A stretch of 64,000 nt of DNA. It comes from Paludibacteraceae bacterium (GTDB lineage: Bacteria > Bacteroidota > Bacteroidia > Bacteroidales > Paludibacteraceae). Made by a program: the position numbers and the translations under genes. This document shows, one piece after another, positions 1 through 48,762 of the stretch (positions are counted from its first letter, which is position 1; each line of letters opens with the position of its first letter). The notes under the pieces were generated by a model that worked only from the letters and a program-made list of their open reading frames with translations, did no database searches and had not been told where the DNA came from. The DNA is taken from the NCBI GenBank assembly GCA_017527905.1, contig JAFXPK010000053.1:1-64000 (forward strand), in the 5' to 3' direction.

Positions 1-3000
1 GAATTCCTTGATATCATCATAAATGAATTCGCCACAATTAGAAGCAAATTTGCCATGCTGTTCACAAGAATGTGCCTGGCACCACCAATCAAGGCATCCA
101 AACGGAACAAAATCTCCCACGACAGGAATAAATCCGAAGGCTATGGTTCCAGCGTCATACACATGACTGACCACATTCCTCGCTGACATTCCATTGCTTA
201 AGGCATCACCCCATGCGTCCACCGCAGAACCGGTTGCGCTATAGACATCATATTCATCCTTAACGAATTTAGATACCTTCTTTACGGTTTTCCAAGTATT
301 CGACGCGCCTCTATAGCCACCCTCAATAAGATCACCAAACGCAGGTATCCATCCGACTATATCCATAAAGCAGCTAAAGCCTCCATCGATTTCCTCTTCG
401 CAATCATCATCATCGTCGTCATCATCTCTATCACAATCAAACTCAACGGTCGATGAGGCACCAGAACCAACATGCCAGCTTCCGCCATGGAAACTAAAGT
501 AACCGCCTTCCAATAAATGTCCGAGGCAATCCCAGAGTTTCACATATGCCAACTTCTTGATATATATTTCACAATCATAGAAGTATATGATATAGAGGAA
601 ACAACCCTCATCTGGGCTATCGACCGAATCGTCTGTGCCCGTCGAACCTCCGCTGTATCCGCCCACATTGGTAGTGACACCCGCATTATTGTCGAACGAA
701 CCGCCGCCAAAAACAGTAGGATAGTAGAACAAATAAGGGTATCCTATGCCCGTGTTATCATTATTCGGATATCCACTACCACTCTGTCCATCTCCACCAG
801 AAGGTGCTTGCTCAGAAAGTCTCTCTATGGTCACTGGCACCACCACAGAATAGTTCGCTGGGAGAGAATCGATATGATCCACATCCGGCGTGAACTTGAA
901 GTACTTCATGGCAGGAGTTTCTATGCTCACATTCTTTGCGGCGATCATTCCATGATTTGTAATCAAAAGATTCGCAACATACTTAGTGCCAGGAGCGAAG
1001 TCCTCTCTTTTTGGCAAGCCATCAGGGAATTCAGCCGTCACAACCGGAGCAGGAACATTCGTCTCGTATTTGGCCTCGATATCCAAATTATACTTATCCT
1101 CAATCTCCGTACGCACCACATTCCATGTATACGTCACAGCCTGATAGGAGACAAAGACGAACTTATTCAGAGTCTGACCGGCCTGTACAGTAATCGTCTC
1201 TTTATGTCCGGAATGCTTATCTGCATTGACTATCAACGAATAATCTCCCTCCGGAATTTTGTCGAAACGAACCTTACCGTCAACATCTGTAACGCCAGAC
1301 GCTACAACAGCGGAATTGAATGCGTTCCTGATCTCAACTGTCGCACCGGCAAGATGGTTCTTTGAAGAAGAGTTGTAATAATATTCGTCCACCACATCAA
1401 CGCTAACGCTTCCCACAAGAGAAGACGTGTATTCCATCGTGTAGCTAATCGATGTGGACTTGCCATTCTCACAGTTGAAACCGATCGTACCGCTGTACGG
1501 AGTATTCAGCTTAGCGCCGTCAAAATAAGAGAGCTTCAATGTCGCTTTCACCGTATCGCCAGGTTTTATGCTCTCGATTACAGTGCCACTAGGCATTGAC
1601 ATACCCTCAAAATTATTTGGCAGAGCCACCGTCACCTTACCAGTCTCTCCTATACCGGTGTTGCAGAGCAAAAGTTCAACATACTTGTTCTTCTGCTTAG
1701 AGACATATGCACTGATAGTCGAAGGCATCACCTTGATTTGTCCATATGGCATCTCGCAATAGAAATACGAAGTGAAGCTAGACATCAGACCTTCGGCAGT
1801 CTCCACACGGAACGTCGACATCAGATACCTATTCCCTTCTGTCACAGACTCACCCGTCACATAGAAGCTGATGGTCTTAGACTCAAGGCCATTCAACACT
1901 GCGATCGAATCGAACTCAACCTTGCAACCATTAGCCAAAGCCAACGTATTGACCTTCACATTGGAAGCCACGACATTGCTTAGGTTCCTCACAGTAATAG
2001 TACCACGGATGGTGTCTCCTTTCTGCACAACCCACTTATCCATGCCCACACTGCAAGAGATTCCAGGAATATCAAACGCATCATATGTGACATCCGAGGA
2101 TTCTCCGCTCAGACATACACCAACGGAATAAACACCGCTCTCGAACACCGTGGAGGCATACACAACCTCGACCTTGCCATCGGCATCAGAAACGACCTCA
2201 TATGTCCTGATTTCAGAATCACCCTTCCTCAACGACACCTTCAGACGTTTGCCTTCCAATGGGTTACCAAATGCGTCAGACACAGATCCCTTAATTGTAA
2301 TCGAATCTCCCGCCTTGTACACCTCTTTCTCGACCACAGCATCGAACACATAGTAGTTCGCGAGAATACCCTTCAAATCCATCACCGCGGTATGGGTGCC
2401 GGACTGGAATGTCAATGTGGCGCTGCTCAATGGCTTATTCGCATCAGTAGGTGTGAAATAGACATCGTAAGAGCCTCCGGTCAACGCATTCCAATTGTCG
2501 GAAAGTTGAACGGAGAAATCCGCCGCATCCGTTCCGGAAATCGTATAGGAGATCGAATCCTGCAATTCGAATCCCTTGACAGACCTGCGGGAGGAAGTGG
2601 TGGCGTTCAGCTTCGTTCCCAACTCGCAAACCGACGAACCGTTGATCTCCAGACTTACAGGAATCTCAATCCTGAAGCTATCGATGTCGGAGTATATCGT
2701 ATCGCATGAGAGGATGGCCGCCACCATGTATTTGTACGTGGTATGGTTATCCAAATCCGACAGGGTTTGGTAATGATTATTCACGTAAGAAGCCATTGGT
2801 GCGGACGGCATGCTCTGAGCGGCCTTCCATACATACAAGTCGTATTTCTCCACCTCAACAGGGAGCGACAACCGCCAATCTATGGTCATGTTTCCATCCT
2901 GCTCATTCACCACATACGATTCACGAGGGCTGGCGAATGTCACCTTCTTTTCGGAGAGATCCGGATATACGTAGTAGTTATAGTTGAATGGAGCGCTAGC

Positions 3001-6000
3001 CACACCCGCCTTGTCGTAAGGAGTAACCATCAAAATCATCGTATCGATATTATCCCCCGACGTACGGAGCTTCATGGACGGAATCGACGTGCCGCTACCT
3101 GATGTGCTCTCATATCCCGTGACATTTCCCGCACGGGCAATCTCCCAAGTAATCGTGGCGATTGTGGAATCGAACGTAGCCTCGAGAGAATAGCTGTTGT
3201 GACATACCACCTGACCGTAATCCAGCATCTGAATATATTCGCCATCAAACTCAAATGCGCCAAGGTCGATCGACTTGCCATAGATTCTCGCGCTACCGTT
3301 CATGTCGGTCTTAGCCGTCATCAAACTGTCAAGACCCTTGTCGACGCAAGAAGATGTCGCATGCAGACGATAGTCGCCACCCGCAGCATTGATGAAACAT
3401 ACATAATTCTGCGATGCGTCAGAACCGCTATTGGCAGTGGCCAACCTGATATTGTTCTCGCCGGACAATTCATCATCGGAAGCGCAATACATCACCTTCA
3501 AATAATCCGATGAAACAACCTGAGGGACAACAGCGTTCCTCACCTTGTTGCCATAGATGATGGAGTTGGCGATGGTAGAACGGGTGTCAGTGGAAGTGTA
3601 CGTGCGATAGATCGGACACCTATCCTTCGTAGTGTTGTGAGCGATCGTGGAATTGATAATGGATGAGTTATAATCATGCGAGATGATGCAATAGCCAACA
3701 TTACGCGCCTCATTACCATACACCAAAGAGTTCTCCATTATAGAATTAGACAAATAGATCACATTGCTATACGTGGAGATATTTTTAGAGATCTCACAAG
3801 ACGAAACGACGGATTGACCTGTAGCCTCAAGCACACCATATGTGGTGCTTTGTCCGCTCAACCGTGAGTTGGACATAACAGAGCCCCTCAAAGAAACAAT
3901 TCTATACCCTCTTCCGTCACTATTGTTGATGAACAAACAACTATCCACGACTCCACCATTGAGTTCGAGCGACTGAACGGAATTTCCGATGAACTTACAG
4001 TTCCTGAATTCTGACTTCTCAGCGAAGACGCTTTCCTCTCCATCTTTCGCATTATTGAAGGAACAACCGATGAATGTGACATTCTTTTTACTCTTCACGT
4101 TCATACCGTTATTGTTCCTCAAGGATCCATTCTGGATAGTGAATCCGTCCACCACGATCGCCAATGAATCAGCGAAATCGTAGTTCTGGATGATACATCT
4201 TCTCTTGTATTGACCATCAATCACCGTAGCATTCTCCGCAACATTCCTCTCGTCCAAAGAGGATTCCGTACCGGCGAAACCACCGTACAGGCTCACGCCA
4301 GCGGCAAGCGAGATGGCGGACGACAATGTCGTATCTCCGTAGTAAGTTCCCGAAGCCACCCAGATCTGATGTTTCTTTCCGGTAGTGGAAGCTAGGGTTA
4401 CCGCCTGGTTGATTTCGCCCAGCGCATCGTCCCAGTTCAAACCAGAGCCCTCAGCCCCAGCCTTCACATAGATGATTGAACCGACAGTTGCCCGTTCGCT
4501 GAATGAGGACTCGATCGCACCCATATCCACCGCATTGCTCTGTTTCCTCTCGTTGCCAAGCATATCGAGCGTATCCGCAACGTCTGTTCCAGCATTGATA
4601 CAGAAAGAAGTTTCGGAGAGCGAGTAGTCACCCTTGGCGGCATCCGTAAACGCAGCGCTAGATTTGCTTCCGTCAACATTGCCTTCCCCATTGGCACCAC
4701 CTTCAATCATCGAATATCTGATCGTGACATTACCATTCGTTCCGACACTCGCTGAATTATCCAAACGTTTATTTCCTACGACAATTGAATTCAGGACTTG
4801 CGTGTTAGAGAAACAATACACAGTCTGATATCTAGACTCATTGTCCGCCACAGTACAATTGAATATCCTTGAATTTTCAAAAGCCGCGATCAAATAATTT
4901 CCGCGAGACTTACACTTAGTGATTTGGGAATTAGAAATCAATGAATTGCCATAATCACACAAGACATAACCCTGTGTTTCGTTTCCGTCGATCAAACATC
5001 TATCAACAACTGAGTTGGACCTCATATGGATGATATAGCCACTACCCTTCGAGTTAACGTTGTTGATGATCTTACAATCGGACATCGTAGTACCAACAAG
5101 ATAGAACACATCGCCACCGTAAGATTCGTTTCCGACGAGCACCGAATTAGTAACACGTGCGGATTCTGCCCGCAAAGCGCCCGAATTATTCGCTATATTG
5201 TTTTTCAAGATACAGTTATTAATCGTCGTGTTGGCGTTAATGTTCACACCAGCGCCATTTGCCGCATATCCGTTTTGGATGGTGAATCCATCCACCACAA
5301 CCGGCTTAGCATCAGGGAATCCGAAGCTTTGGGAGATCACGCATTTTTTATTTTCTCCATCCAAGATGGTTGGATTCGTCGCAACATCACGCGCCTCCAA
5401 TGAGGTCTCGTTGCCGGCAAATCCTCCATAGAGGCTGATTCCACTCGCCAAAGTCACAACAGCAGGAAGCGTCGTGTCGCCATAATAGGTACCAGCCGCC
5501 ACCCAGATCTGATGATTTCTATTGTCCGACGAAGCCGCGAAAATCGCTTGCTGAATATCGCCGAATGCAGCATCCCAACTTGAACCATCTCCATTAGACC
5601 CCAGCTTCACGTACACGGTATCTGTGCACGTGATTGATGGCGCACTTGTATGGGCGGACTCGATCGCACCCATATCCACCGCACCACCTTGCTTCCTGAC
5701 TTTCCCGAGCAAATCAAGCGTGTCGGAGATGTCCACACCAGCATTGATGCAATAAGAATTTGCGGACAAGGAATAGTCCCCGTTTTCAGCATCCGTGAAG
5801 TCTGCATACTTCATCGAACCATTAATATTACCCTCCACGAAGGTACCCTCCAACATATTGTTGACTATCGTGTTCGATCTACTTGTGCCCAACACAGAGG
5901 AATAAAGCTCATTCATCTTGTTGCCGACAACAATTGAATTTTTCAACGTGGAACCTTCCACAAAGATAATATTGGAGCCTTTCGTCTCGTTACGCACAAC

Positions 6001-9000
6001 CGTACAGTTAATCATGTTCGCGTAATCATACAGGTTGATAAGCGGACCATCCGACGTAGAAACGTTGTCGCAGACCAGGGAGTTGAAAAGCGCAGCTGAG
6101 CCATAGTTCAGACTTACGACACGAGAAGATGACGTATTGCCCTTTATCAAACACCTGCTGATTTTTCCGTTGGATGAAATCAAAGTCGTCTTCGATGAGT
6201 TATCAAGAATCTGGCAATCTTCCATCAACGCATTACCACCTCCGACATTCACAATATTTGCGCCAGCATTTGTATTACCCTTAATCAAACAATTCCTCAT
6301 TACGGAAGCGTTACCCAGGCTCACGGAAGCACCACTACCCTCCGTGTTCACAAACTTACAACTGTCGACTCGACTTGATTGGAAATAAGAACCACAATAA
6401 TTATCCTTGGAAGAGGTATTCCCTTCAATCACGCAATTGCTTATCTTAGCATTGGATTCAGAGTAGATCGCGCTGCAAGTATATGTCTTGTTATTCTTCA
6501 CCTCACAACTATCCATCACACATCCTCCAAGCCATATGGTGTAGGATAGCTCACCCACATACGAATTGTCCTCAATCAGCGAGTTCTTAATGACCGCTCT
6601 CTTCGCATAGATGGCAGATCCATGGACTGAAGCCGAATTGTCCTTGATGATACAGTTGTTAACCGTGGCGTTGGCATTGATGTTCATACCACCTCCATAC
6701 ACCGCATATCCGTTCTGGATAGTGAAACCGTCCACCACGACCGCCAAGGAATCGATGAAATCATAATTCTGGGAGATGACACATCTTCCATGCATACCAT
6801 CCAAGACAGTAGGGTTCTTCGCGACGTCTCTTGCGGAGAGTGAAGTTTCAGTGCCCGCGAATCCTCCATATAGGCTGATTCCACCCACAAGGCTCACCAC
6901 AGAAGAAAGCGTCGTGTCACCGTAATATGTACCGGCAGCCACCCAAATCTGGTGTTTCTTTCCGTCTGTCGATGCGGCGGCGATCGCCTGTTGGACATCA
7001 CCGAATGCGGATTGCCAACTTGAGCCATCACCGTTGGAACCCTGCTTCACATACACGACATCACCACACGGCACAACCGTCTGACTCTTCGTATAAGCAG
7101 ATTCTATGGCACCCAAATCCACGGTGCCACCCTGTTTTCTCGCATTCCCCAACAGGTCAAGTGAGTCAGCGACATCCACACCAGCATTGATGCAATTAGA
7201 ATTCTCCGACAACGAATAGTCTCCGTTTTCAGCATCCGTGAATGCGACATACCGCATCATACCATCAACACCATCCACGTAGGAAGAACCAATCATATTG
7301 TTGGTGACCGTATTGGTGCCATTGGCATTCAGAACACCGGAATAATTATTGGCAGCCCTGTTGTCAACAACAATTGAGTTTTTCAACATGGAATTAAGCA
7401 GGGCAACGGCATATCCACATTTCGTCTCGTTATGAACGACCGTACAATTGATCATGGCAGCGCCATCCCGCAAATAGATAGGCTCATATGATGTTGACGA
7501 ACTAACATTGTCGCAAATCAAGCAATTGGAGAACGCCGCACTAGTACCACGAATCTCCGCTATACGACCAGTCACGGTGTTGCCCTTTATCTGACATCTG
7601 TTGAGCTTTCCATAAGAAATCATCAAATCAGAGTTCACCGTATTGTTAATAATCTGGCAATCCTCCACCCTGGCATTGCCACTTCCGATATACATAAAGA
7701 CTGTGTTACAATTCGAGTTGCCATCGAACAAGCAACGCGTCAGCAAGGTTGAGCCCTGCAACTCCACGGCAGCTCCTTCTCCAATGGCATTCACGAACCT
7801 ACAATCGCTGACTGTCGTAGAGACGAAATAGGAACCTCTGTTACCGTTCCTATAGGAACTGTTCCCCTCAATTGTACAACTACTTACCGTGGATTCTTCC
7901 GCATAGATTCCACTATTATAAGTTGCCTTATTATCCTTCAGCACACAATCCTTCATTTCACAGCCAATCAGCCATACAGTGTAGTAAAGATTGTTCGAAT
8001 ACGTATTGCCAATGATTTGGGAATTCTTGATTGTGGATTTTTGCGCATATATGGCCGAAGCTCTATCGGTAGCCTTATTGTTTTTGATGATACAATTGTC
8101 AATCGTAACATTGGAGGAGACGTTCACACCACCGCCATACGAAGCGACTCCGTTTTGGATGGTGAATCCGTCCACCACGACCGCCAAGGAATCTGGGAAT
8201 CCATAATTTTGGTAAATCACACGTTTGGTACTCCTACCATCCAGAATAGTCGGATTCTTCGCGGTATCACGAGCGGACAAAGAAGTTTCATTTCCGGCGA
8301 ATCCACCATATAAGTCGATTCCCCTCTCCAAAGAAAAGGCCGATATCGAGGATGTTGAGTCTCCGAAATATGTGCCGGCCGCCACCCAAATCTGATGTCT
8401 CCTGCCATCGAGAGTGGCCTTTCTTATCGCCTCGTTCACATCTCCGAGTGCGGACGACCAGCTTGAGCCATCGCCCTTCGAGCCTTGCTTCACATACAGA
8501 ATGTCTCCCATGGTTGGAGCCTGAACCATCGCATGCCGAGATTCAATCGCACCCATATCCACCGCACCATTCTGTTTCCTGGCATTACCCGTCAAATCGA
8601 TTGTATCCTGCACATCCTGACCTCTGTTGATGCAATACGACTTCTCGGAAAGTGAATAATCGCCCTTCTCAGGATCCGTGAATGCGGCCAACTCTTTCGT
8701 ACCGGTAATATTCCCCTCACCCCATACACCTCCTTCGATCATCGAATGGCGGAACGTGTTTGATCCGACCGACAAAACATGTCCTCGGAAAGAACCTGTG
8801 TGCTTTGTGCCTACAATGATGGAATTAATTACCGAACTACTATTCATTCTAAGAGAATATTCGGCACCCGTCTCATTATCCGCGAATGTTGTGTTTATCA
8901 TATTGGCGGAATATAAACAAAGAGGGGCAGACGCAGCCTTTACGTTCTTATTCCCATAAATCAACGAATTGGAGAGAACAGACGAAGTACGGATATTCAC

Positions 9001-10032
9001 AATATAATGATCATTGTCCACCACATTGTTATAGACCTTACAACGGTTCATGTACGACACATAATACACATATACAATTTCAAAATCGATTCCCCTATTG
9101 TCGAAAATTTCAGAATCCTCAATCTTCGAATAATCCTGAATATGGATTAGGCTATTAGCCGTACTTGTATTCTTTGAGAACGAACATCCTTTAACCAAAC
9201 TTTCATTGTAGGCACAGACTCCGGCATTGCGGCCATAATTATTTGTCACCACACAATCGATCAGCTTTGACCTAAGATTCAAGTACAAAGGGGATTCATT
9301 TTCCGCATAAATGTTCTTATTGGAATCTATCGTGGTATTTGACACCACGGAACTATTATACACATATATACCGGAACAAGAATACGCCGTATTGTTCTTC
9401 ACAACACAACCGTCCATCTCCGAAGCATTCAAAAAAACGGTTCTATAGGCAGTACCGGAAGTGGTATTGTCGGAAATTATACAATTCTTGACCTTAGCAT
9501 TCGTGGCATATATCGCCAAACCGAAATCTGTCGCCGTATTATTCTTCAAGATACAATTGTTCAGCGTGGAGTTCTTTTGCAGATAAGCTCCACCACCATT
9601 GGATGCAGTACCATTCCGGATAGTAAATCCATCCACCACAACCGCGGACGCATCTTCAAAATCACTTACCTGATAGAGCACCTGAGACTTCCCGTCTCCG
9701 TCCAACACGGTGGCATTCTTCGCAGTATCCCTTGCGGCAAGAGAAGTCTCCCCCCCCGCAAAACCGCCATACAGACTGACATTGGGCTTTAATTTAACCA
9801 CCACGGAAGAGTCGCTTTTGTAGACTCCCTTGGCTACCCAAACATCAGCACCTTTTTGGGCGGCCAAATCCACCGCCTGCTGGATGTTTCCGATTGCATC
9901 ACTCCAAGAACTACCACCTCCACTAGCTCCTGACTTCACATAAATAACATCTTTCGCCGACGCAGCAAGCGTCACAAAAGAAAGCGCTAAAACCAACCAC
10001 AGCGGTTTTAGCCTAAAAATAATAGAATTCAT
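1..10032 (-). CDS. Giant secreted multi-module beta-helix protein, C-terminus beyond left edge
   Basis: This frame is open from an ATG at 10032 to base 1, giving 3344 codons with no stop in the lines I checked; the rest lies outside the window. The N-terminus is a signal peptide (basic start, LVLALSFV core, cleavage near ASA-K). Five beta-helix modules start near residues 25, 507, 988, 1471 and 1851, each opening with a YVKxGxxGxGSSW-type motif, then LYGGFAG and VVVDGFTI, and mostly closing with D(M/L)GAIES. Next come an Fn3-like region (about 2390), an Ig-like region (about 2564), a carboxypeptidase-regulatory-like domain (about 2879) and a Cys-rich segment with eight consecutive Asp. The whole protein parallels its upstream neighbour at 10378-24558, so it is probably a cell-surface or secreted adhesin-like T9SS cargo. 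The sorting domain itself cannot be seen here. Ligand unknown. Confidence 0.93.
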   Translation of the reverse strand, partial: MNSIIFRLKPLWLVLALSFVTLAASAKDVIYVKSGASGGGSSWSDAIGNIQQAVDLAAQKGADVWVAKGVYKSDSSVVVKLKPNVSLYGGFAGGETSLAARDTAKNATVLDGDGKSQVLYQVSDFEDASAVVVDGFTIRNGTASNGGGAYLQKNSTLNNCILKNNTATDFGLAIYATNAKVKNCIISDNTTSGTAYRTVFLNASEMDGCVVKNNTAYSCSGIYVYNSSVVSNTTIDSNKNIYAENESPLYLNLRSKLIDCVVTNNYGRNAGVCAYNESLVKGCSFSKNTSTANSLIHIQDYSKIEDSEIFDNRGIDFEIVYVYYVSYMNRCKVYNNVVDNDHYIVNIRTSSVLSNSLIYGNKNVKAASAPLCLYSANMINTTFADNETGAEYSLRMNSSSVINSIIVGTKHTGSFRGHVLSVGSNTFRHSMIEGGVWGEGNITGTKELAAFTDPEKGDYSLSEKSYCINRGQDVQDTIDLTGNARKQNGAVDMGAIESRHAMVQAPTMGDILYVKQGSKGDGSSWSSALGDVNEAIRKATLDGRRHQIWVAAGTYFGDSTSSISAFSLERGIDLYGGFAGNETSLSARDTAKNPTILDGRSTKRVIYQNYGFPDSLAVVVDGFTIQNGVASYGGGVNVSSNVTIDNCIIKNNKATDRASAIYAQKSTIKNSQIIGNTYSNNLYYTVWLIGCEMKDCVLKDNKATYNSGIYAEESTVSSCTIEGNSSYRNGNRGSYFVSTTVSDCRFVNAIGEGAAVELQGSTLLTRCLFDGNSNCNTVFMYIGSGNARVEDCQIINNTVNSDLMISYGKLNRCQIKGNTVTGRIAEIRGTSAAFSNCLICDNVSSSTSYEPIYLRDGAAMINCTVVHNETKCGYAVALLNSMLKNSIVVDNRAANNYSGVLNANGTNTVTNNMIGSSYVDGVDGMMRYVAFTDAENGDYSLSENSNCINAGVDVADSLDLLGNARKQGGTVDLGAIESAYTKSQTVVPCGDVVYVKQGSNGDGSSWQSAFGDVQQAIAAASTDGKKHQIWVAAGTYYGDTTLSSVVSLVGGISLYGGFAGTETSLSARDVAKNPTVLDGMHGRCVISQNYDFIDSLAVVVDGFTIQNGYAVYGGGMNINANATVNNCIIKDNSASVHGSAIYAKRAVIKNSLIEDNSYVGELSYTIWLGGCVMDSCEVKNNKTYTCSAIYSESNAKISNCVIEGNTSSKDNYCGSYFQSSRVDSCKFVNTEGSGASVSLGNASVMRNCLIKGNTNAGANIVNVGGGNALMEDCQILDNSSKTTLISSNGKISRCLIKGNTSSSRVVSLNYGSAALFNSLVCDNVSTSDGPLINLYDYANMINCTVVRNETKGSNIIFVEGSTLKNSIVVGNKMNELYSSVLGTSRSNTIVNNMLEGTFVEGNINGSMKYADFTDAENGDYSLSANSYCINAGVDISDTLDLLGKVRKQGGAVDMGAIESAHTSAPSITCTDTVYVKLGSNGDGSSWDAAFGDIQQAIFAASSDNRNHQIWVAAGTYYGDTTLPAVVTLASGISLYGGFAGNETSLEARDVATNPTILDGENKKCVISQSFGFPDAKPVVVDGFTIQNGYAANGAGVNINANTTINNCILKNNIANNSGALRAESARVTNSVLVGNESYGGDVFYLVGTTMSDCKIINNVNSKGSGYIIHMRSNSVVDRCLIDGNETQGYVLCDYGNSLISNSQITKCKSRGNYLIAAFENSRIFNCTVADNESRYQTVYCFSNTQVLNSIVVGNKRLDNSASVGTNGNVTIRYSMIEGGANGEGNVDGSKSSAAFTDAAKGDYSLSETSFCINAGTDVADTLDMLGNERKQSNAVDMGAIESSFSERATVGSIIYVKAGAEGSGLNWDDALGEINQAVTLASTTGKKHQIWVASGTYYGDTTLSSAISLAAGVSLYGGFAGTESSLDERNVAENATVIDGQYKRRCIIQNYDFADSLAIVVDGFTIQNGSLRNNNGMNVKSKKNVTFIGCSFNNAKDGEESVFAEKSEFRNCKFIGNSVQSLELNGGVVDSCLFINNSDGRGYRIVSLRGSVMSNSRLSGQSTTYGVLEATGQSVVSSCEISKNISTYSNVIYLSNSIMENSLVYGNEARNVGYCIISHDYNSSIINSTIAHNTTKDRCPIYRTYTSTDTRSTIANSIIYGNKVRNAVVPQVVSSDYLKVMYCASDDELSGENNIRLATANSGSDASQNYVCFINAAGGDYRLHATSSCVDKGLDSLMTAKTDMNGSARIYGKSIDLGAFEFDGEYIQMLDYGQVVCHNSYSLEATFDSTIATITWEIARAGNVTGYESTSGSGTSIPSMKLRTSGDNIDTMILMVTPYDKAGVASAPFNYNYYVYPDLSEKKVTFASPRESYVVNEQDGNMTIDWRLSLPVEVEKYDLYVWKAAQSMPSAPMASYVNNHYQTLSDLDNHTTYKYMVAAILSCDTIYSDIDSFRIEIPVSLEINGSSVCELGTKLNATTSSRRSVKGFELQDSISYTISGTDAADFSVQLSDNWNALTGGSYDVYFTPTDANKPLSSATLTFQSGTHTAVMDLKGILANYYVFDAVVEKEVYKAGDSITIKGSVSDAFGNPLEGKRLKVSLRKGDSEIRTYEVVSDADGKVEVVYASTVFESGVYSVGVCLSGESSDVTYDAFDIPGISCSVGMDKWVVQKGDTIRGTITVRNLSNVVASNVKVNTLALANGCKVEFDSIAVLNGLESKTISFYVTGESVTEGNRYLMSTFRVETAEGLMSSFTSYFYCEMPYGQIKVMPSTISAYVSKQKNKYVELLLCNTGIGETGKVTVALPNNFEGMSMPSGTVIESIKPGDTVKATLKLSYFDGAKLNTPYSGTIGFNCENGKSTSISYTMEYTSSLVGSVSVDVVDEYYYNSSSKNHLAGATVEIRNAFNSAVVASGVTDVDGKVRFDKIPEGDYSLIVNADKHSGHKETITVQAGQTLNKFVFVSYQAVTYTWNVVRTEIEDKYNLDIEAKYETNVPAPVVTAEFPDGLPKREDFAPGTKYVANLLITNHGMIAAKNVSIETPAMKYFKFTPDVDHIDSLPANYSVVVPVTIERLSEQAPSGGDGQSGSGYPNNDNTGIGYPYLFYYPTVFGGGSFDNNAGVTTNVGGYSGGSTGTDDSVDSPDEGCFLYIIYFYDCEIYIKKLAYVKLWDCLGHLLEGGYFSFHGGSWHVGSGASSTVEFDCDRDDDDDDDDCEEEIDGGFSCFMDIVGWIPAFGDLIEGGYRGASNTWKTVKKVSKFVKDEYDVYSATGSAVDAWGDALSNGMSARNVVSHVYDAGTIAFGFIPVVGDFVPFGCLDWWCQAHSCEQHGKFASNCGEFIYDDIKEF
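3240..9957 (-). repeat. Array of five beta-helix modules inside the left giant gene
   Basis: Module starts lie near 9957, 8512, 7069, 5620 and 4480, so the first three spacings are about 1445 bp and the next about 1140 bp. Each module has a conserved first third (YVKxG motif, WVAAGTYYGDTT, LYGGFAG, VVVDGFTI) and a more variable beta-helix body with many short N-x-x-(I/V)-x-x-N/C turns. The last module (from 4480) resembles the last module of the neighbouring giant gene more than its own siblings. Confidence 0.85.
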
Positions 10033-10377: not shown

Positions 10378-13300
10378 TTACTTCACAATCACCTTGGTGC
10401 CGTTAACGATATATACACCCTTCGGCAATGTAGCCACCATCGTGACTCCCTCGCCATACCGCGCATTCTTCACAACAAGTCTGGAGAGCAGATCATAGAT
10501 GTCAAGCACGCCCGCCATTTCAGATTTAACATAGATGTTATTCCCGTAAGTATAAATGACGATTTTGTCCGTCTCCGTCTCTTCGACAGAAGTAACGATA
10601 GGACCATATCCTTCAATGTACTGACTCCAAGTGGCATTCTTGCCGAACTCGCCAGGATAGCCATCTTTGTCATACACATTATTGACATTCACCTCAATCT
10701 TGAAGAAGCCGGTAGCCATCGTCTTTGAAGAGATATTCACCACATACGTGTAGTCATCACGTTGCGCAACTGTGATGGTCGAATCGCTCAGGTTATCGCC
10801 AGCCTGACAGTACAACTCAATATCCCTATAGTCGAACGATTCCTTCTGAATCTTATGGCTAAATGTGACAATCACGCTATCGACAGGAGAGGTAACTGCC
10901 TCCACCGTTGTCGGAACGCCCGTGATCGATGTAACCCTCAGAAGATTCTTCCTCACGCTATAGTAAATGTCATAATCATTCTCGCCCAGAGTCGTCATGT
11001 GATCCAAGAAATGCAGACGGTTCACATAGACTGGTTCCATGCCGTCAGGAAGCGTGACGAACGTTGTCCAGACATTGTCCAGAGGAATCTCGACGCTATC
11101 CTTCACTCTCACCACCTTCTGTATCTCATAGCAATTATTGCCTGGATCCATCATCTGAGCATAGTTCCAACCCGCATTAGAAGGCGTGACGGTAAGCCTA
11201 ACCACCGTGTCCACAGGAGAAACCCTCTCCTTGTCAAGTCTAGTCCACTGCGTACCATACACAGGATCCATGCCTCCGTTAGAATAATAGATCGCATCAG
11301 GAGTGTCGTCATCATCTTCCTTGTCATTCACAAGGAAGTCAACAATACTATCCTCCTTCACGCCGTAAGCGTCAACCGTCTTGATCAGTTCATGGATTGC
11401 GATACCCTTCACCAGGCTCAGTTCCGGATTACCGAAGCTGTTCGCATGAACCACGCTCGCCTCATACTTCGTGAAGTGTCCAAGCAAGGAGCTTGTCATC
11501 CACCACACACCCGTCTTAGCGGAATGAGCCTCGATATTACCGAAGTCTATATTCTCAGAACCGAGGTCACAATCCTTGCCATTCAGGCTAGAGCCGATGA
11601 TCGAGAAGTCGATCAGCAAGCCCTTCTCGTTGTCTACGATCTCTGGTTGGGCGGTCTCAAGCTTCACATTCTTAGCGTCACCATAGCCTTGGTTATCGAT
11701 TCGCACACCCAAAGCCGCCGGCACACTTGGCTCGACACGGTCAAGCGTCAGAGCATCGTCGGCAAGGATATTACGTTGCATAAAGTAATCGATCTGCAAG
11801 TCTGGGCTAGGGTTAACCGTCAGCGTCACAGGATACAAGTCAGCCGACACAGTGTCGCCGGAAGAAGGATCCACGTAGATGATACGTCCGCCGAACGAAT
11901 AGTTCACAGGAGCAGTCGGAGCCGCGCCTCTCTCAGGGATGAATCGGAACACAGCGGTAGCCTCCGACTTCGGAGCGATCTCACCCGTGCCATCGATAGC
12001 GGAAGCGCCCGTCACCTTCTCGGTATTGATCTGGAACAAATCGTTTGCAAGATTTCCTTCCTCGTCACGGACCTCAAGTTCGACCTTGAATCCCTCCATC
12101 GCACCCGTCTCGTTACCATTGTTGACAGTAAGCGTACCGTCGAATGCCTCGCGCGTCATGGTCAGCGTCTGGGAGATATGGAGCTTAACGCTTGCGCAAA
12201 TATTCTTTTGCGTCGGCTTGTGAACCTGTTTGTTGATGGAAAGCAACATGTGATCAAGCGTTCTGTGACCACGCAATCTCATATAAGTATAGAAATTAAC
12301 AATGCTATCCATATATGTGCTAATCACTGACTTGTCGATGATGTTAGGATACTGCTCGTTAGGAGAGTAGACACCATTTTCGTTCGCCTCCACCGTTTCG
12401 TTCCAACGCTGAGCGATCTCAAGCATTTCCGTCGTAGGAAGATCCAAAGTCGGAAGCTTCTTAATAGAATCCAGACTAATCTTCCTGCCATGAGAATAAT
12501 CCTTGATGGTATAGTCGAAATAATCAACGATTCCACTCACTGAGAGTCGGTCTTCCGAACCAGCAAGTTCCCTCAAGATATTAGTTTTATAAGAGAGGAA
12601 TCCAGCCAACTCCACAGCATCTTGAGCAGCCAACGAACGAGCATCGGATGTCTGATAAATGCTGTTCTGCATTTCGAACTGAGCCTTTCTCATCGCAGGC
12701 TCTTTCGGTTTGTTTTGAGCGCTCAAGCTATCTCCGTCCGAATAAAGCACATCAACCATCACACCATTCTCAATCACAACAGTATCTCCAGCCGTAGTGA
12801 CAGCCTTTCTCGTATCCGCATCCTCCTCATTATTACCCATGATACGATCATAGACATAGCGTCCACAGTTCTCCGCATATCTACCAGCATCACAGGAATT
12901 CAATTGGCATAACATGTCTATACATTCCCAAGGAACATACTTAACCACAGGAATCTTATCCTTGGCATCATCCAAATACTCCTTGCCTTGATCCCAAATG
13001 AAATCGACAGCCTCATAAGGGTCCAATTCCCCGCTGTAGGCATCCACAAGCAACCTCACTGCCTTATACTCCGTCTGCAAAGAACTTATGCTTGCGGACA
13101 AGAAAGGAAGATCCTCATCATCTTCATCGTCGTAATCAATATATCCGTTAAAGAAATAGCCGTCTTGCCTATCCATCCTCTCAACCAAATCCTCTGGAGT
13201 CGCATTGTTGAGTTCATAGTCGTTGAATGGAGATTCGGCCGTCTCAAACCAATGCGCATGATCTTCCTCTTCTTCCTCCACCTCACAACTCAATCTTTTA

Positions 13301-25539: not shown

Positions 25540-28500
25540 TTACAGTTCAACCAACACCTTCTCGTGACCTACGATGTAGTAGGAACCCTTCTTCAATCCA
25601 TCCAAAGCCTCAGACTTCTTGACGTTGGATTTTACGATGACACCAGAGATGGTATAGACATTAACCAACTCGTCCATGTCTCCCGCAAGTTGTGTCTTTA
25701 CGCCCACATGCTCAGAATCATCGCACATGTAGAGTTGGATATCATCCAACACCAAATCATTACCTTCCTTGTTATAGTCTAGGATTCCATCCGTTCCATC
25801 TCCCGCACAAGAAACGACGGACAACTCCATATCGGTTCCCTGCAAATAAAATTCCACTTGAGCGGCAACCCAATCTACGCCACTAGTTATAGATTTCACC
25901 GCATGTTTTGACTTATGGATATCACCTGTGGTCAGATCCTTCACTTGGATGCGAATATCCACTGGATATGGGGAGCCAGCGAATGTGTTCACATAGCAAA
26001 TAGCCGTATAGTTTCCAGATTGCAATCCGCTAACCTGTCGTGTGTAAATCGGAGCCTCTGACTCATTGTTGCAGTTTAGGAACAGCATGCCTCCATAAGC
26101 GGTCGTGTCATAGGTGTGGTCCGGGATGAATGTCCAGCCATTCTCTATCGGGCGTTTCCCGTCCCCGAAATAGGCTTCCCAACCCCACTGCGTACCACCT
26201 TCAAGACCATCATAAGCGCATGTCACATTCCCGGCGACGCAATACCTACCTTCAGAAGACGGAGACTCTGCACACTCCACATTAGCTTGTGGCGTCAATT
26301 CGATGCATGTCGCCCAATTTTTTCCATCCGTATGATCCAGTTTCTTCGGGTTGCTGAGGTCACTGTAGTCCCACGTCCAATAGTTTTTATCGGAAGTGAA
26401 CGTACCGAAGTCCTCCTGCCAAACCAGTTTCTTCGGAATCTTGTTGCCGTAATCGTCCAAACAATAAGAATCTATTACAGAGACAGGGTCAACGTCCGCA
26501 TAGACAATCAATGTGTCGTATGTATTGCAATCGTTTATTTCTTTGCCATAGGCATCCAAGACGTTGTCCTGCACCTTTAGGATGAATAAGGTACCATTCT
26601 TGTCCGCATCTTCCCAGTTCACCGTCAATGGTCTAGCGACCGCACCTAAGATATCGCTGATCGGCATCGATTCGGCATCATCTATGTGCCAAGACATTAT
26701 GTAGTCGGCATAAGGCTTGCCATTCATGTCCATGACTGTCACATCGCTCGAGGTCAGTGTCACGGACTCTCCTGATTTAAGATGGATGCTCTTCACGTAT
26801 TTGCCATCCGCATAGATAGTAGGTTCTCCGGATTTAGTACATTTAACCGGATTCTCTGCTGAGCATAAGAAGAGTTGGATATCGTCCAAGATGAAGTCAC
26901 TACCTGTCGGAGTGTTGGAGCGCATAATGACCTCAAGTAAAATCTCATCCCCCTCAAAATTAGTACGGATAGAAAACTCCGCCCAATCTGACCCGACGAG
27001 TTCCAACCCGTCCACAACATTCGATTTCACGACTGTACCTGACTTCAAATCGGTCAGACGCATATATACTTCTCCCTTTGTCGTTTCCGCAATAAATGTA
27101 TTCAGATAACCCCTTGCCAACAAAGAAGCGTTCGGTATGAGTGAACTTTTTATCGTTTTCGAATAAACGACAGAATCAGTAAAGCTGCCGTTCACAAAGA
27201 ACATGCCTCCATAATCCAAACCTTGGTAAGTGTGGTCGGGAGCGAATGCCCTGCCGTTTCTCCCAGGAGTCTCTCCGTTAAAACAATAAGCTTCATATGA
27301 CCAACACGTACCACCCGACACATCAACATCATTCGAACAAGTCACGTTGCCGGCAACGGTATAGGTGGCGTCATAAGAAGGACTTGTGGCACAAAAATAC
27401 CCACTAAGTTCCAGGCCATAACATGTGCTCCACTTCTCGGCATCGTCATGCATCACTTTCTTAGGCGCATCCGGATCGGAATAGTCCCACGACCAATAAG
27501 TGGAATCGGACGTGAAAGTTCCGAAGTCCTCTTGCCAGAGCAAACGGCGAGGCAACGGCTGACCAATATCGTTTTTACAACACTCTATTTCCTTGATTTG
27601 AAACGACGCAGACTGCATCTCTACGCTAGATGACGAGAGAGAATAAGAATAGACAGTCTCTTTTTGAGGAGAAACAGGATATGGGACATGAACATACTCC
27701 CAATCAGTAGCCCCTTTGATTGCACGGCCATTCTCGTACCACTGGATGGTGGTATTACTGTAGATCGTATCAGCGGACAGCACAACTGCGTCCGAACCCA
27801 CACACACCTCTTTCGGTCCATAAACAATAGGCGCAATGTCCGCATAGAGTCTGATGGACTTAATCATGAGCGCAAAACCTGTATACAAGTTGGTTGCCAA
27901 ATGGAAATCCAAGTCTCCCTTTTCGTTAAGATTAGCCAAATATGCGGAAGTCTCGAATATACTCAAAGAACACTTTTTCGCAGCCAAGGACCTCAAGGAA
28001 AACATTTCATAGGCAGCAGCCAAAGGTTTTTTACCCGAATTAATCATCAACTCTCCCGAGTACACAGCAATGGAATGCGGTTCCGGGTTAGTTGGGCTAT
28101 AATCAACATATGACGGCGTATGAGGATTACAATATTCCACTTCGATTCTGCATTTGCCTTGGGCTTTCAATCCCTCCACATGACAAGACAACACGCATTG
28201 CTGCTGTAGGCCTCTCTTCCCAGAAGAAACGACGAAGCCCCATTCTCCGTTATCTTCATTATCCATCATACGGAACGAATCCAAGCGGACTGGATTAGGA
28301 GTGATGGCATAGCAAGGTTGATTGTCTAGGAACGACGAGCTTTCCTCGCTGAAGGCAATGGAATCAGCCATTTTCATCTCCGTAGAAAATGTGATAGGCA
28401 CGATTGTATTGCCCGTGGCACTTACCTTATCCAAGGATACCATCTGCGCACCTTCCTGTCCAGGCACAGAGAAGTCGATCTCCGCCACCAAAGGCAATTT

Positions 28501-28596
28501 TTCTTGTTGTGCAAGAGCACCCACCCACATTCCTAATAGGAGTACCAGGAATGTCAAACATCTTGTAAAGTTGTTTCTCATACTCGATTTTCTCAT
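25540..28596 (-). CDS. Secreted T9SS type A protein with a duplicated module (1018 aa)
   Basis: A signal peptide (hydrophobic core LVLLLGMWVGALA, cleavage near ALA-QQ) begins the protein; an ATG at 28581 is an equally good start. An N-terminal beta-rich region is followed by an Ig-like segment (about 270-340), then two copies of a roughly 225-residue module (about 354-575 and 724-954). Both copies open with WQEDFGTFTSD and close with LDDIQL(F/Y)(L/M)C. The last 60 residues (VNVYTISGVIV, GLKKGSYYIVG, KVLVEL) form a type A T9SS sorting domain. The paired modules look like jelly-roll or carbohydrate-binding folds of T9SS cargo, but I do not recognise the family and give no substrate. A possible promoter at 28796-28826 would leave a leader of about 190 bases. 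Confidence 0.9.
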   Translation of the reverse strand: MRKSSMRNNFTRCLTFLVLLLGMWVGALAQQEKLPLVAEIDFSVPGQEGAQMVSLDKVSATGNTIVPITFSTEMKMADSIAFSEESSSFLDNQPCYAITPNPVRLDSFRMMDNEDNGEWGFVVSSGKRGLQQQCVLSCHVEGLKAQGKCRIEVEYCNPHTPSYVDYSPTNPEPHSIAVYSGELMINSGKKPLAAAYEMFSLRSLAAKKCSLSIFETSAYLANLNEKGDLDFHLATNLYTGFALMIKSIRLYADIAPIVYGPKEVCVGSDAVVLSADTIYSNTTIQWYENGRAIKGATDWEYVHVPYPVSPQKETVYSYSLSSSSVEMQSASFQIKEIECCKNDIGQPLPRRLLWQEDFGTFTSDSTYWSWDYSDPDAPKKVMHDDAEKWSTCYGLELSGYFCATSPSYDATYTVAGNVTCSNDVDVSGGTCWSYEAYCFNGETPGRNGRAFAPDHTYQGLDYGGMFFVNGSFTDSVVYSKTIKSSLIPNASLLARGYLNTFIAETTKGEVYMRLTDLKSGTVVKSNVVDGLELVGSDWAEFSIRTNFEGDEILLEVIMRSNTPTGSDFILDDIQLFLCSAENPVKCTKSGEPTIYADGKYVKSIHLKSGESVTLTSSDVTVMDMNGKPYADYIMSWHIDDAESMPISDILGAVARPLTVNWEDADKNGTLFILKVQDNVLDAYGKEINDCNTYDTLIVYADVDPVSVIDSYCLDDYGNKIPKKLVWQEDFGTFTSDKNYWTWDYSDLSNPKKLDHTDGKNWATCIELTPQANVECAESPSSEGRYCVAGNVTCAYDGLEGGTQWGWEAYFGDGKRPIENGWTFIPDHTYDTTAYGGMLFLNCNNESEAPIYTRQVSGLQSGNYTAICYVNTFAGSPYPVDIRIQVKDLTTGDIHKSKHAVKSITSGVDWVAAQVEFYLQGTDMELSVVSCAGDGTDGILDYNKEGNDLVLDDIQLYMCDDSEHVGVKTQLAGDMDELVNVYTISGVIVKSNVKKSEALDGLKKGSYYIVGHEKVLVEL

Positions 28597-44652: not shown

Positions 44653-47600
44653 TTATTCTTTTAATATTTCAACAGTACCCCTTTTCTCCTTTCCATTCTT
44701 AAAACGGACAGTGTAGAGGTACACGCCCGCATCGGCCGGCTCACCACGGTAACGACCGTCCCATCCGTTGGTGGAGTGGCAAACCAACAATCCGTAACGG
44801 TCGTGTATAAATATCTCATACCCCTCCATAAACACATCGTTGACACCGTTGTTGTTAGGGGTGAAAGATGTCGGGATATCCACATCGTCCTCATTGCGCA
44901 CATACAGCAAAAGGGTGACTATGCTATCGCAGCCGTTCGAGTTAGCGTATGTGGTGTCGAATGTATGCAAGCCAGCGACAGTTTGTGCCGGAAGGTCAAA
45001 ATTCCGGTCGTGATATGTATCGCCGAATAGGATGGTGTCGGAATAGGTGTATTCTGTTTTAGGGAAAGCCTTCACACTCAAGGAGAGGATGCTATCACAA
45101 TGCGTGGAGGATGTGAGCGTTTGGTAATGGACGCTATAGCCCTCCTCATCCGCCACGAAATCGAACCCGTTTCTTTGATAACGTTCCATGAAACAGATGG
45201 AATCGACCATTGAAATCTGATAGACCGTATCGACCGTAAGCGCTAGCACATGGATGAATGTGCAACCCTCCTCGTTGAGCTCCGATCTCTCTTTGTATTG
45301 CAAGCCAGCAGGCTGAAAGGCTGGTATCTCGAACCCGTCCTTATAATAGCCTTCGTTCTGGCAGACATGGGCGTATTGGGTGTCCCGTTGGGCCGGCAGC
45401 ACCTCCAACCGCAGGCAGATGACGCTATCGCACCCATTTCCATCGGACAATGTCGCGGTGTCGTAGACAATGCCTGGAAGCGACGGTTGGAGAAGGAATC
45501 CATTCCGCTTGTAAGTGGCCCCTTGGCAAGTGACATCGCTCACACGGGTGGTGTCTTGCGCATCCAGAACGGTAAGGTTCAAGATGATTTTCTGCGTACA
45601 CTCTCCATTATCGGCCTCAGCCTGATAGACACCCGACTCGGAGGCCTCGAAATAGTCATCTTTGTAGACCTGTCCATGGCATATCGTCTTGTTCAGTGAG
45701 ATAGGGTCAACGCTTTGCACATAGATGGTCGTGTCATGCTTGGAGGAACACTTTCCTCCGTTCGACAGGATCGTGACCTCATAATTGGTTGTATGGGTTG
45801 GATAATCCACGATGTTTGGGGTCGTTTCGCCCGTGTTCCAATGATAGGAGAGCGTGGTGTCTTCATACTCCGTGTAGTCCTCGCAAACAGTGAATTGGCG
45901 CATCGGTCGGATGGACAAACCCTCCGTCAGCCAAGCGTAATCGAAATTGCCTTGCGGGATAGAGAAGACATATCCATAAGGATGCAACGTGACATCACAA
46001 GTCCAGTAATCCTCGGCGGGGAAAGTGGTTCCATTATTCACATAAAGCACAGAATCAAACAGTGTCAAGTTGGAATAAAGGAGGTTCATCTCCGCGCGGG
46101 TCGGGATGTACCACCCGTTCTCGAAGTCCACCGCCCATGCTGCGGGATATTGTGAGGAGTCCCCCAATTCACGGTATTTCCGTGTGCACTCATAGCCATG
46201 GGTAGTGTACAAACGGTCATCCACCTGCGTCATTAAGGTATCCGCAAATGGCTCTTCCGTGTTCTGGATACGGATGGAGTCGATATCCTCCATGGCGATC
46301 ATCGTACCCGTTTTCCCGTCCGGACTGACACAAAGGACAATTCCTTGTGAGCCATCCGCATTTGTAACCAGATCGCCCATCTTATATTTCGGTTGAGACC
46401 AATTCGAGAGCTTCACTTTGCGTGAATACCTAGTGGGCCGGTAGGAGTTTTTGGGTATCGCATAGATGAAGAAGTCCGATTTGAAGCAACAAGCCCAAGC
46501 GTCGTTGTATTCACTACTTGAGAAATAATAGAAGGACCGGCCACCTTGGAAAGCGTCGTAATTGTTGAAGAAGAGGGTATCACCGCCCAAGCGGTTCAGC
46601 GAGGCGTTCACTAGGCTGACGGACCCGAACATTTTCCGAAGCTCCCCTATAGCAGGGATATACCATCCATGCTCCAAATCGGCCGACCAGGCAAGTGGGT
46701 ATTCATTGGCATCACCCGTCCCCCTGATCAGGGCGGTGTGACCGAACCCGTCCATATCCTCCAACAAATTAGGAAGATACTGTTGGTTCTCCAATGCTGG
46801 TATGTCATACTCGGCAGTACTCCATTGCATCGTTTGGGATGGTTCGAACAAATGAACCACATATGCGTACCCCTCCGTATCGTCATAATGGTACACAACG
46901 CCCTCCGCCTGCTTGCCTGACGTAGGGAAGGAATCTATGCTCACGAACGATCCATCGGAGCAGTAGACATCACCGATGGAGACTGGGGACGGATCGCACT
47001 GATGGTAAATGAGGGTACTACCAGAACTCTTGACGGAGAGCCTGAGCATGGACGAATCGCAATGAATGCCCTTGTTAGGAGAGACCTCAAACGCGACCTG
47101 CGGAATAGGTAGCACCGTCAACTGCAACACGATGGTACTGTCACACCCTTTCTTCGTTTGGAAGGAATGGGTGGAGGTGAAAAAGCCTGATTTCTCCTGC
47201 TTGCCTAAAGAGATGCTTCCGTTGCTATAACTTTCGCCCTGACAGATCGTATCGGACAGGATCTTGTAGTAAGAAGGATATGGATAGACAGTATAAGGCG
47301 ATGCGCTTGTTCCGCAACCGTTCTCTCCGATCAGCGTCAACGTAGCCGGTTCTTCGCTAGTGAAATACAAAGCAATCTGCGGGGAGTGCTCTCCGCTAAC
47401 AACCTTCACATTGGCAGGGAGATCCCATTTATACTGGGAAAGGTTGTCTTCCAGTTCAGAGGAATAGGTGACGACCTGGTTGGTGCAAGGGTGGAGCTCT
47501 CCCTTCAGCTCGTTAGAGAGGTTTCTGGTGTCATTGACCACCAAACGAAGGCAGACGATGCTATCACAACGTTGCCTGCTCCGTTCAAACTTCAGCGTGT

Positions 47601-48762
47601 CCGTCAACACACCCACAGGAGGCTGTATGATGCGGAATCCGTTCTCCACGTAATCTTCCCCCTCGCAAATGTAGACATTGATCGGGAAATACTTCTGCAG
47701 GACAGTCAATTCAAGGCTGACCGTGGCCGAGGCGGAGCATGTGGCGGGATTAGCGATCAAGTTGGTGTACCCGAACGTGCCCACATTCACCTGTGGCGGC
47801 AAATCGAAGTTATGGAGGCTATAGGATTCCCCTTGACAGATAGTGTCCCGAATGGTAACATCTCCCCCCGTATAGGAATCGGTGACGTAAGCGCTCTGAA
47901 TAAATTGGCAGCCCGTCGCGGATGTGATCTCACAGAATATGTTCATATCTCCCCCATTAAAGGTACGGGTCGAGACGCGCGTCGTGTCTCCATTGTCCCA
48001 ACGGTAGGAAGGGAAACCTTCCGGTGCGGCCAAGGAGAAACTAGCCCCCTCACACACATCCAGGCTCAGTTTGTTAGGCGCACAGGAGGCGGTGAAATAG
48101 GCGTATCCGTAATGCCCGAAGAGGAAACAGTCGTACGTGATGAACTGGACCTGCACCTCCTGCCCAATGAAGGGCGTCAAATCAAGCCCGATCTTCGACC
48201 AATCCCGCCAACGCACCGTATGATACTCATTGCCCTCTGTATACGAAAAGTCATGGAAGCCCTCCAATCCGGCGGCGGCGGTGACATCATAGACGGAACA
48301 ATCATTCACCAACTTGCCATTCTTGTCTGTGACACGGATGACGAAACGAGGCTGGAATGCGAACTCATGGCCGGGATCCTCCATCACCACAGCAAAGTTG
48401 ACGAACAACAGGGAATTGTCGGGGTCAACAATGTAGTGATACACGATCGCCTCCGACTCGCCTCCGATACTGTCATTGCCCAAACGGATGGACTTCGACT
48501 CTCCATCAGGGATGAGTTTCAGCCTGTTGCCGGTATGGGGATCATACCCTTGCTCTTCATTCAGATGATGTCGTTTCGGATTGATCCCTAAATCCTCAAA
48601 GGGGTTGTCGGTCATACCTGTATAGAAGTCCACATAGGAGGCGGAGATGTCCATGAAATCGGGGCATCCATTGTAGGGTATTGCCTGAGAAACAGATAAG
48701 GCTCCCCCTATGACGCCCAACAGCATCCCTAGCAAGACTTTCCTTATCACTTGGTTTCTCAT
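44653..48762 (-). CDS. T9SS type B secreted protein with PKD-like and DUF1566-like domains (1369 aa)
   Basis: A signal peptide (LLGMLLGVIGGALSVSQA) is followed by a region with a jelly-roll-like pattern (about 25-240), then PKD-like units containing the motif CEG and CDSI (SYRWDNGDTTRVS at about 260, further units to 560). Two DUF1566/Lcl-type lectin-like modules follow near residues 700 and 887, each with GWYIP(A/T) and paired Trp/Cys, then more CDSI-type repeats. The end is a type B T9SS sorting domain (gliding-motility-associated CTD): SFTPNNNGVNDVF, IHDRYGLLV, GWDGRYRGEPADAGVYLYTV. It is therefore exported by T9SS and anchored or released at the surface. Function unknown; adhesion is a guess from the domain types. 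A TATCTTTG box at 48814-48807 may be its promoter. Confidence 0.93.
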   Translation of the reverse strand: MRNQVIRKVLLGMLLGVIGGALSVSQAIPYNGCPDFMDISASYVDFYTGMTDNPFEDLGINPKRHHLNEEQGYDPHTGNRLKLIPDGESKSIRLGNDSIGGESEAIVYHYIVDPDNSLLFVNFAVVMEDPGHEFAFQPRFVIRVTDKNGKLVNDCSVYDVTAAAGLEGFHDFSYTEGNEYHTVRWRDWSKIGLDLTPFIGQEVQVQFITYDCFLFGHYGYAYFTASCAPNKLSLDVCEGASFSLAAPEGFPSYRWDNGDTTRVSTRTFNGGDMNIFCEITSATGCQFIQSAYVTDSYTGGDVTIRDTICQGESYSLHNFDLPPQVNVGTFGYTNLIANPATCSASATVSLELTVLQKYFPINVYICEGEDYVENGFRIIQPPVGVLTDTLKFERSRQRCDSIVCLRLVVNDTRNLSNELKGELHPCTNQVVTYSSELEDNLSQYKWDLPANVKVVSGEHSPQIALYFTSEEPATLTLIGENGCGTSASPYTVYPYPSYYKILSDTICQGESYSNGSISLGKQEKSGFFTSTHSFQTKKGCDSTIVLQLTVLPIPQVAFEVSPNKGIHCDSSMLRLSVKSSGSTLIYHQCDPSPVSIGDVYCSDGSFVSIDSFPTSGKQAEGVVYHYDDTEGYAYVVHLFEPSQTMQWSTAEYDIPALENQQYLPNLLEDMDGFGHTALIRGTGDANEYPLAWSADLEHGWYIPAIGELRKMFGSVSLVNASLNRLGGDTLFFNNYDAFQGGRSFYYFSSSEYNDAWACCFKSDFFIYAIPKNSYRPTRYSRKVKLSNWSQPKYKMGDLVTNADGSQGIVLCVSPDGKTGTMIAMEDIDSIRIQNTEEPFADTLMTQVDDRLYTTHGYECTRKYRELGDSSQYPAAWAVDFENGWYIPTRAEMNLLYSNLTLFDSVLYVNNGTTFPAEDYWTCDVTLHPYGYVFSIPQGNFDYAWLTEGLSIRPMRQFTVCEDYTEYEDTTLSYHWNTGETTPNIVDYPTHTTNYEVTILSNGGKCSSKHDTTIYVQSVDPISLNKTICHGQVYKDDYFEASESGVYQAEADNGECTQKIILNLTVLDAQDTTRVSDVTCQGATYKRNGFLLQPSLPGIVYDTATLSDGNGCDSVICLRLEVLPAQRDTQYAHVCQNEGYYKDGFEIPAFQPAGLQYKERSELNEEGCTFIHVLALTVDTVYQISMVDSICFMERYQRNGFDFVADEEGYSVHYQTLTSSTHCDSILSLSVKAFPKTEYTYSDTILFGDTYHDRNFDLPAQTVAGLHTFDTTYANSNGCDSIVTLLLYVRNEDDVDIPTSFTPNNNGVNDVFMEGYEIFIHDRYGLLVCHSTNGWDGRYRGEPADAGVYLYTVRFKNGKEKRGTVEILKE

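What the first reader, a model, noticed from the sequence alone, without database searches (positions are those of the whole stretch)
1..10032. A hidden giant gene: at least 3344 codons open to the left edge
Minus-strand triplets aligned to 10032 run without a stop to base 1 in every part I checked, and the translation repeats the architecture of the intact neighbour. A caller that demands a stop inside the window would miss it and would report only short frames on the opposite strand, leaving 10 kb apparently without a gene.
Basis: seen in the sequence. Interest (0 to 1): 0.7.

Follow-up and report, generated by a model that had tools for sequence, protein, structure and literature searches.

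The report
Giant surface protein cut by contig
The first 10 kb of this contig is the front four-fifths of a very large, repeat-built cell-surface protein gene of a gut or rumen Bacteroidales bacterium, interrupted only because the assembled contig ends there; it is a real gene of a recognisable kind, and contigs often break inside its relatives.

Summary
Confirmed: the minus-strand frame from 10032 to base 1 is open for 3344 codons with no stop, starting with ATG and a signal-peptide-like N-terminus. Base 1 is the end of contig C24, so the gene is cut by the assembly. A tail of 46 codons plus stop, like the neighbour's end, opens contig C26; the gene after it is 95% identical to the one following a tandem array in relative G009. 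About 732 codons are unassembled (estimate); the whole protein should be about 4,120 aa. P0001 has five right-handed beta-helix modules (model pLDDT 85.7), then Ig-like and carboxypeptidase-regulatory domains. Its neighbour (4757 aa) has six modules and a C-terminal domain without a Pfam or NCBIfam model. Most likely these are giant surface proteins exported by the type IX system (SprA present), although the neighbour's tail and the C26 tail score just under the curated cut-off (21.0 and 20.5 versus 23 bits). Internal modules appear to duplicate and homogenise. In 14 relative contigs, 9 end inside such a gene. New member of a known kind.

The parts
1..10032 (-). P0001: 3344-codon open frame, 5' part (about 81%) of a giant gene cut by the contig end
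9955..10032 (-). signal peptide (residues 1-26, MNSIIFRLKPLWLVLALSFVTLAASA)
   Evidence: read by eye; no predictor run
8497..9942 (-). beta-helix module 1 (residues 31-512)
7054..8496 (-). beta-helix module 2 (residues 513-993), modelled
5614..7053 (-). beta-helix module 3 (residues 994-1473), modelled
4471..5613 (-). beta-helix module 4 (residues 1474-1854), penultimate type
3253..4470 (-). beta-helix module 5 (residues 1855 to about 2260), last type
2713..3195 (-). PKD-like and fibronectin III-like domains (residues 2280-2440; below Pfam cut-offs)
2101..2307 (-). Big_1 Ig-like domain (residues 2576-2644; below Pfam cut-off)
1165..1368 (-). carboxypeptidase regulatory-like domain (residues 2889-2956)
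   Evidence: PF13620, 48.3 bits, cut-off 32.3
1..1035 (-). variable Cys-containing linker (residues 3000-3344) at which the contig ends
10378..24651 (-). P0002: complete paralogue, 4757 aa, six modules
10606..12228 (-). conserved C-terminal domain of P0002; core without Pfam/NCBIfam model; its P0001 counterpart lies in the assembly gap
10402..10539 (-). T9SS type A-like sorting tail of P0002 (21.0 bits, cut-off 23)

Best explanation
Bases 1-10032 (minus strand) are the first four-fifths of a gene for a giant secreted surface protein, about 4,120 aa when complete, cut by the contig end. The protein has a signal peptide, five right-handed beta-helix modules in a row, a stalk of Ig-like and carboxypeptidase-regulatory domains, a conserved C-terminal domain (in the unassembled gap) and a short T9SS-like sorting tail on contig C26. 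It is probably exported across the outer membrane by the type IX system and anchored on the surface, where the helices project as a long rod that binds surfaces, fibres or glycans. The open frame, the modules and their predicted fold, the paralogy and the contig end are shown; T9SS export is probable; the adhesive role is inferred. Internal modules appear to duplicate and contract by recombination while the first, penultimate and last modules stay fixed, so rod length differs between species.
For: Open frame, 0 of 3344 codons stop. Beta_helix 112.9 bits versus cut-off 25.9 and choice_anch_Q 113.1 versus 25. Two-module model mean pLDDT 85.7; VIA-align Z 23.6, rmsd 2.6 over 303 residues to the AlgE6 A-module. 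Contig end at base 1. Tail at C26:5-139, 80% identical to the P0002 tail; the next gene, C26:372-1976, is 95% identical to the gene 3' of the G009 array and 57% to the one in G015. SprA 2384.4 bits in the own genome; 62 of 96 TIGR04183 matches over cut-off. Module numbers 5, 6, 6, 7, 2, 6, 6, 6 in eight genes. G034 modules 3 and 4: DNA 94% (cap), 99% (body), 100% (end) identical. First, penultimate and last modules of P0001 find their nearest body match in the corresponding modules of other genomes.
Against: The own 3' end is not joined: about 2.2 kb is absent, and the C26 tail could belong to a further array gene. Both tails score under the TIGR04183 cut-off (21.0 and 20.5 versus 23), and their motif B carries Ser where PMC11969387 reports an absolutely conserved Gly. 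SprA occurs in 41 of 42 family genomes tested, with or without the C-terminal domain, so co-occurrence says nothing. P0001 itself shows no recent module duplication. No binding partner or expression is known.
Confidence: 0.72

Rival explanations
1. The modules are polysaccharide lyases or epimerases and the protein is a giant multi-module enzyme.
For: Closest solved folds are AlgE epimerase A-modules (Z 23.6), with PL6 alginate lyases at Z 22.2.
Against: Over 44 modules the well-conserved residues of the helix body are mainly Asn, Cys, Ser, Thr, Gly and Ile; among charged ones only D182 (40/44) and R300 (36/44) reach 80%, while conservation concentrates in the cap and module end. No DPH motif in P0001 (that motif as an AlgE catalytic mark is recalled, not from a call). 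Tailspikes, pertactin and antigen 43 share the fold.
Confidence: 0.12
2. C24 base 1 continues into a gene end other than that on C26, and the C26 tail belongs to a third, unassembled array gene.
For: G009 has at least three array genes in tandem; the gap size is unknown.
Against: No further module or C-terminal domain turns up elsewhere in the own genome, so a third gene would have to lie almost wholly in the gap.
Confidence: 0.25
3. A decayed pseudogene that happens to be open.
For: None beyond the missing 3' end.
Against: 0 stops in 3344 codons and pN/pS of 0.22 to 0.33 with G034, G009b and G009c.
Confidence: 0.02
4. The real gene is on the plus strand.
For: Plus-strand ORFs of up to 282 aa exist within the span.
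Against: The most open plus frame has 55 stops; protein-level conservation is on the minus frame.
Confidence: 0.01

Closest known systems
Right-handed parallel beta-helix surface proteins with choice-of-anchor Q (PF13229, NF041518)
   Same: P0001 and P0002 match both models over their cut-offs, repeatedly along the module region.
   Different: Tandem array of two to seven modules of mostly 425-484 aa (one of 381) on a long Ig-like stalk with a conserved unnamed C-terminal domain.
T9SS cargo with short C-terminal domains, as in Prevotella intermedia (PMC11969387, passages read)
   Same: Short C-terminal tail with GxY followed by Ile and a basic end.
   Different: Ser in place of the motif-B Gly; TIGR04183 score below cut-off; no experimental cleavage data.
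Flavobacterium SprB-type giant T9SS adhesins (recalled; papers seen only in the listing)
   Same: Giant, repetitive, T9SS-linked surface protein.
   Different: Different repeat type as far as recalled; no link to gliding tested here.
AlgE epimerase A-modules, PL6 lyases and phage tailspikes
   Same: Fold of one module.
   Different: No conserved candidate catalytic cluster noticed across 44 modules; module array on a surface stalk.

Membership tests
Beta_helix (PF13229) / choice_anch_Q (NF041518) | score above the curated cut-off | tested here: met
   P0001 112.9 bits versus 25.9; 113.1 bits versus 25
Beta_helix (PF13229) / choice_anch_Q (NF041518) | right-handed parallel beta-helix fold | tested here: met
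   two-module AlphaFold2 model, mean pLDDT 85.7; Z 23.6 to AlgE6; predicted, not solved
T9SS cargo | Sec signal peptide | tested here: inconclusive
   clear by eye; no predictor run
T9SS cargo | C-terminal sorting domain over TIGR04183 cut-off (23 bits) | tested here: inconclusive
   P0001's own end is not in the window; C26 tail 20.5 and P0002 tail 21.0 bits
T9SS cargo | T9SS machinery in the genome | tested here: met
   SprA 2384.4 bits, cut-off 200; 0 of 14 control genomes match
T9SS cargo | T9SS-dependent export | not testable with these tools
   needs a knockout or proteomics
Uronate-active beta-helix enzyme (PL6, AlgE) | conserved catalytic residues | tested here: inconclusive
   few conserved charged residues in the helix body across 44 modules; no residue-level superposition made

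The most novel reading that the evidence does not exclude
These genes are a length-variable surface-rod system: first, penultimate and last beta-helix modules are fixed while internal modules expand, contract and are homogenised at their caps, all on a C-terminal domain not described in Pfam or NCBIfam that is shared by giant proteins across Bacteroidota and in one Lentisphaerota-type (Oligosphaeraceae-labelled) MAG. Because contigs break inside these genes, metagenome gene catalogues would systematically hold them only as fragments.
Probability: 0.5. Interest if true: 0.5.

Novelty: new member of a known kind. Interest (0 to 1): 0.3.

Why it matters
It shows that a 10-kb stretch that may look geneless is a giant surface gene cut by the assembly, and that this gene class is often cut: 9 of 14 relative contigs end inside such a gene. 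Gene catalogues of rumen and gut Bacteroidales may therefore under-count the largest surface proteins. The conserved C-terminal domain and the homogenised module caps are concrete objects for study.

Tried and rejected
Near-identical paralogous repeats as the reason for this contig break: P0002 and its relatives are about 70-85% identical at the DNA level over most of the conserved C-terminal domain, lower in its flanks, so this is not shown; strain mixture or low coverage remain open. Promoter: a TTG-N20-TACATTTG element lies upstream of the ATG of P0001, but the full element is absent in the other 8 of 9 gene upstream stretches examined and the -7 part alone occurs in 31% of shuffles; not claimed. 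Sequence search of solved structures with the module pair gave one marginal chain (E 0.009, molecule named CA3) and with the C-terminal domain none. The C-terminal model is poor (mean pLDDT 63.7) and its Foldseek matches are not used. T9SS co-occurrence is uninformative (41 of 42). Paper searches for giant T9SS beta-helix proteins showed nothing on this family in the listings of the open library; only PMC11969387 was opened (outline and passages).

Full report
Observation. The minus frame aligned to 10032 has no stop in 3344 codons down to base 1, while the other five frames of the same span have 163, 259, 55, 126 and 182 stops. It starts with ATG and a signal-peptide-like leader (by eye). The window is bases 1-64000 of contig C24, 133,772 bases long, of a 53-contig genome; the frame is open because the contig ends.

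Architecture. P0001 has five modules starting at residues 31, 513, 994, 1474 and 1855; the complete neighbour P0002 (4757 aa) has six. Pfam finds Beta_helix (112.9 bits, cut-off 25.9) and CarboxypepD_reg (48.3, cut-off 32.3), with sub-threshold Big_1, PKD_5 and fn3; NCBIfam finds choice_anch_Q (113.1, cut-off 25). All module matches in the own genome (one module as query) lie in these two genes.

The missing end. The tail of P0002 finds C26:5-139 (80% identity), where a 46-codon frame with stop opens the contig. The next gene on C26 (372-1976) is 95% identical to the gene after the last array copy in G009 and 57% to that in G015, and further C26 genes match the G006 and G015 surroundings, including a dnaK gene. 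With the G034 orthologue as a ruler, P0001 ends at G034 residue about 3917 and C26 starts at about 4650, so about 732 codons (2.2 kb) are missing, and the protein should have about 4,120 aa (from; an estimate). The conserved C-terminal domain is found once in the own genome, in P0002, as expected if the P0001 copy lies in the gap. A third array gene in the gap cannot be excluded.

Selection. pN and pS between P0001 and G034, G009b, G009c and P0002 are 0.164 and 0.748, 0.201 and 0.648, 0.196 and 0.597, 0.321 and 0.691.

Relatives. Of 101 genomes searched (own included), 12 match the P0001 post-helix region at E 1e-5 or better; some of these are short partial matches. The C-terminal domain is in 23 of 300 family genomes (own included) and 3 of 395 of the phylum sample (own included). 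Named relatives are Paludibacteraceae and Bacteroidales MAGs, several from rumen, yak or horse samples, plus more distant ones including a MAG labelled Oligosphaeraceae. The first genome-contig scan had found nothing.

Assembly breaks. Of 14 contigs that carry the module-bearing genes of the Paludibacteraceae group (15 of the 32 loci), 9 end inside such a gene. L081 and L086, more distant loci that also have GGF-type motifs, were not counted. P0001 itself is a further case. The reason for its own break is not shown: paralogue DNA identity is about 70-85% over most of the conserved domain.

Module evolution. Conservation among 44 modules is highest in the first 120 positions and near the module end. 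In P0002, caps of modules 2-5 are 84-89% identical in DNA while bodies are 46-71%; G034 modules 3 and 4 are 94, 99 and 100% identical in cap, body and end; G006 bodies 2 and 3 are 91%. In P0001 the caps are at most 71% identical, so it shows no recent duplication itself. By nearest body match, modules 1, 4 and 5 of P0001 pair with first, penultimate and last modules of other genomes, while internal modules of P0002, G034 and G006 mostly pair within their gene (G034 module 2 does not). These are nearest-neighbour identities, not a tree.

Structure. The two-module model (A3, 24 sequences) has mean pLDDT 85.7 and pTM 0.68. Foldseek's first rows are PL6 lyases with low TM (0.22 for the first), as the query holds two helices; VIA-align gives Z 23.6 over 303 residues to the AlgE6 A-module, then tailspikes, PL6 lyases and autotransporter passengers. 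A shared fold shows no function. The helix body has few conserved charged residues, D182 in 40 and R300 in 36 of 44. A structural or binding role is therefore preferred; enzyme activity is not excluded. The C-terminal model is poor (pLDDT 63.7) and not interpreted.

Export. SprA is present (2384.4 bits). Of 96 TIGR04183 matches in the genome 62 pass the cut-off; P0002's tail has 21.0 and the C26 tail 20.5 bits, cut-off 23. The control for that family is loose: 13 of 14 control genomes show matches, 1 over the cut-off. The tails resemble the short sorting domains of 43-55 aa described in Prevotella intermedia (PMC11969387, passages): GxY with Ile and a basic end are there, the motif-B Gly is Ser. 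SprA occurs in 41 of 42 family genomes tested, so no correlation can be drawn.

C-terminal domain. Its core has no Pfam or NCBIfam model; only its end reaches Big_5 over the cut-off, in two of four members scanned. It sits in giant proteins without GGF modules too.

Verdict. It is a truncated giant surface-protein gene, a new member of a known kind, with moderately interesting evolution.

Noticed in passing
window 10606-12228 (-); L078-L094: Conserved C-terminal domain of about 550 aa whose core has no Pfam or NCBIfam model, shared by giant proteins of several Bacteroidota and one MAG labelled Oligosphaeraceae.
   Followed up: partly
L060 and L062 (G015, G010), middle of the C-terminal part: A segment falling to 61-87% DNA identity between two genes that are mostly 92-100% identical on both sides, which looks like a diversified or exchanged stretch.
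   Followed up: no
own genome, TIGR04183 matches: Both full-length (profile 1-72) and partial (about 12-62) T9SS sorting tails occur, as if this genome also had long and short types; PMC11969387 calls Prevotella intermedia the only species of the phylum reported with both.
   Followed up: no
window 44653-48762 (-): A 1369-aa protein with a CHU_C type IX secretion signal domain (34.3 bits, cut-off 27).
   Followed up: no
window 25540-28596 (-): A 1018-aa secreted-looking protein upstream of the array with two similar halves (by eye) and a weak T9SS-like tail (9.8 bits).
   Followed up: no
L062 1-2405 (G010 contig 43 start): The second array gene of this relative is also cut by its contig end.
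   Followed up: yes
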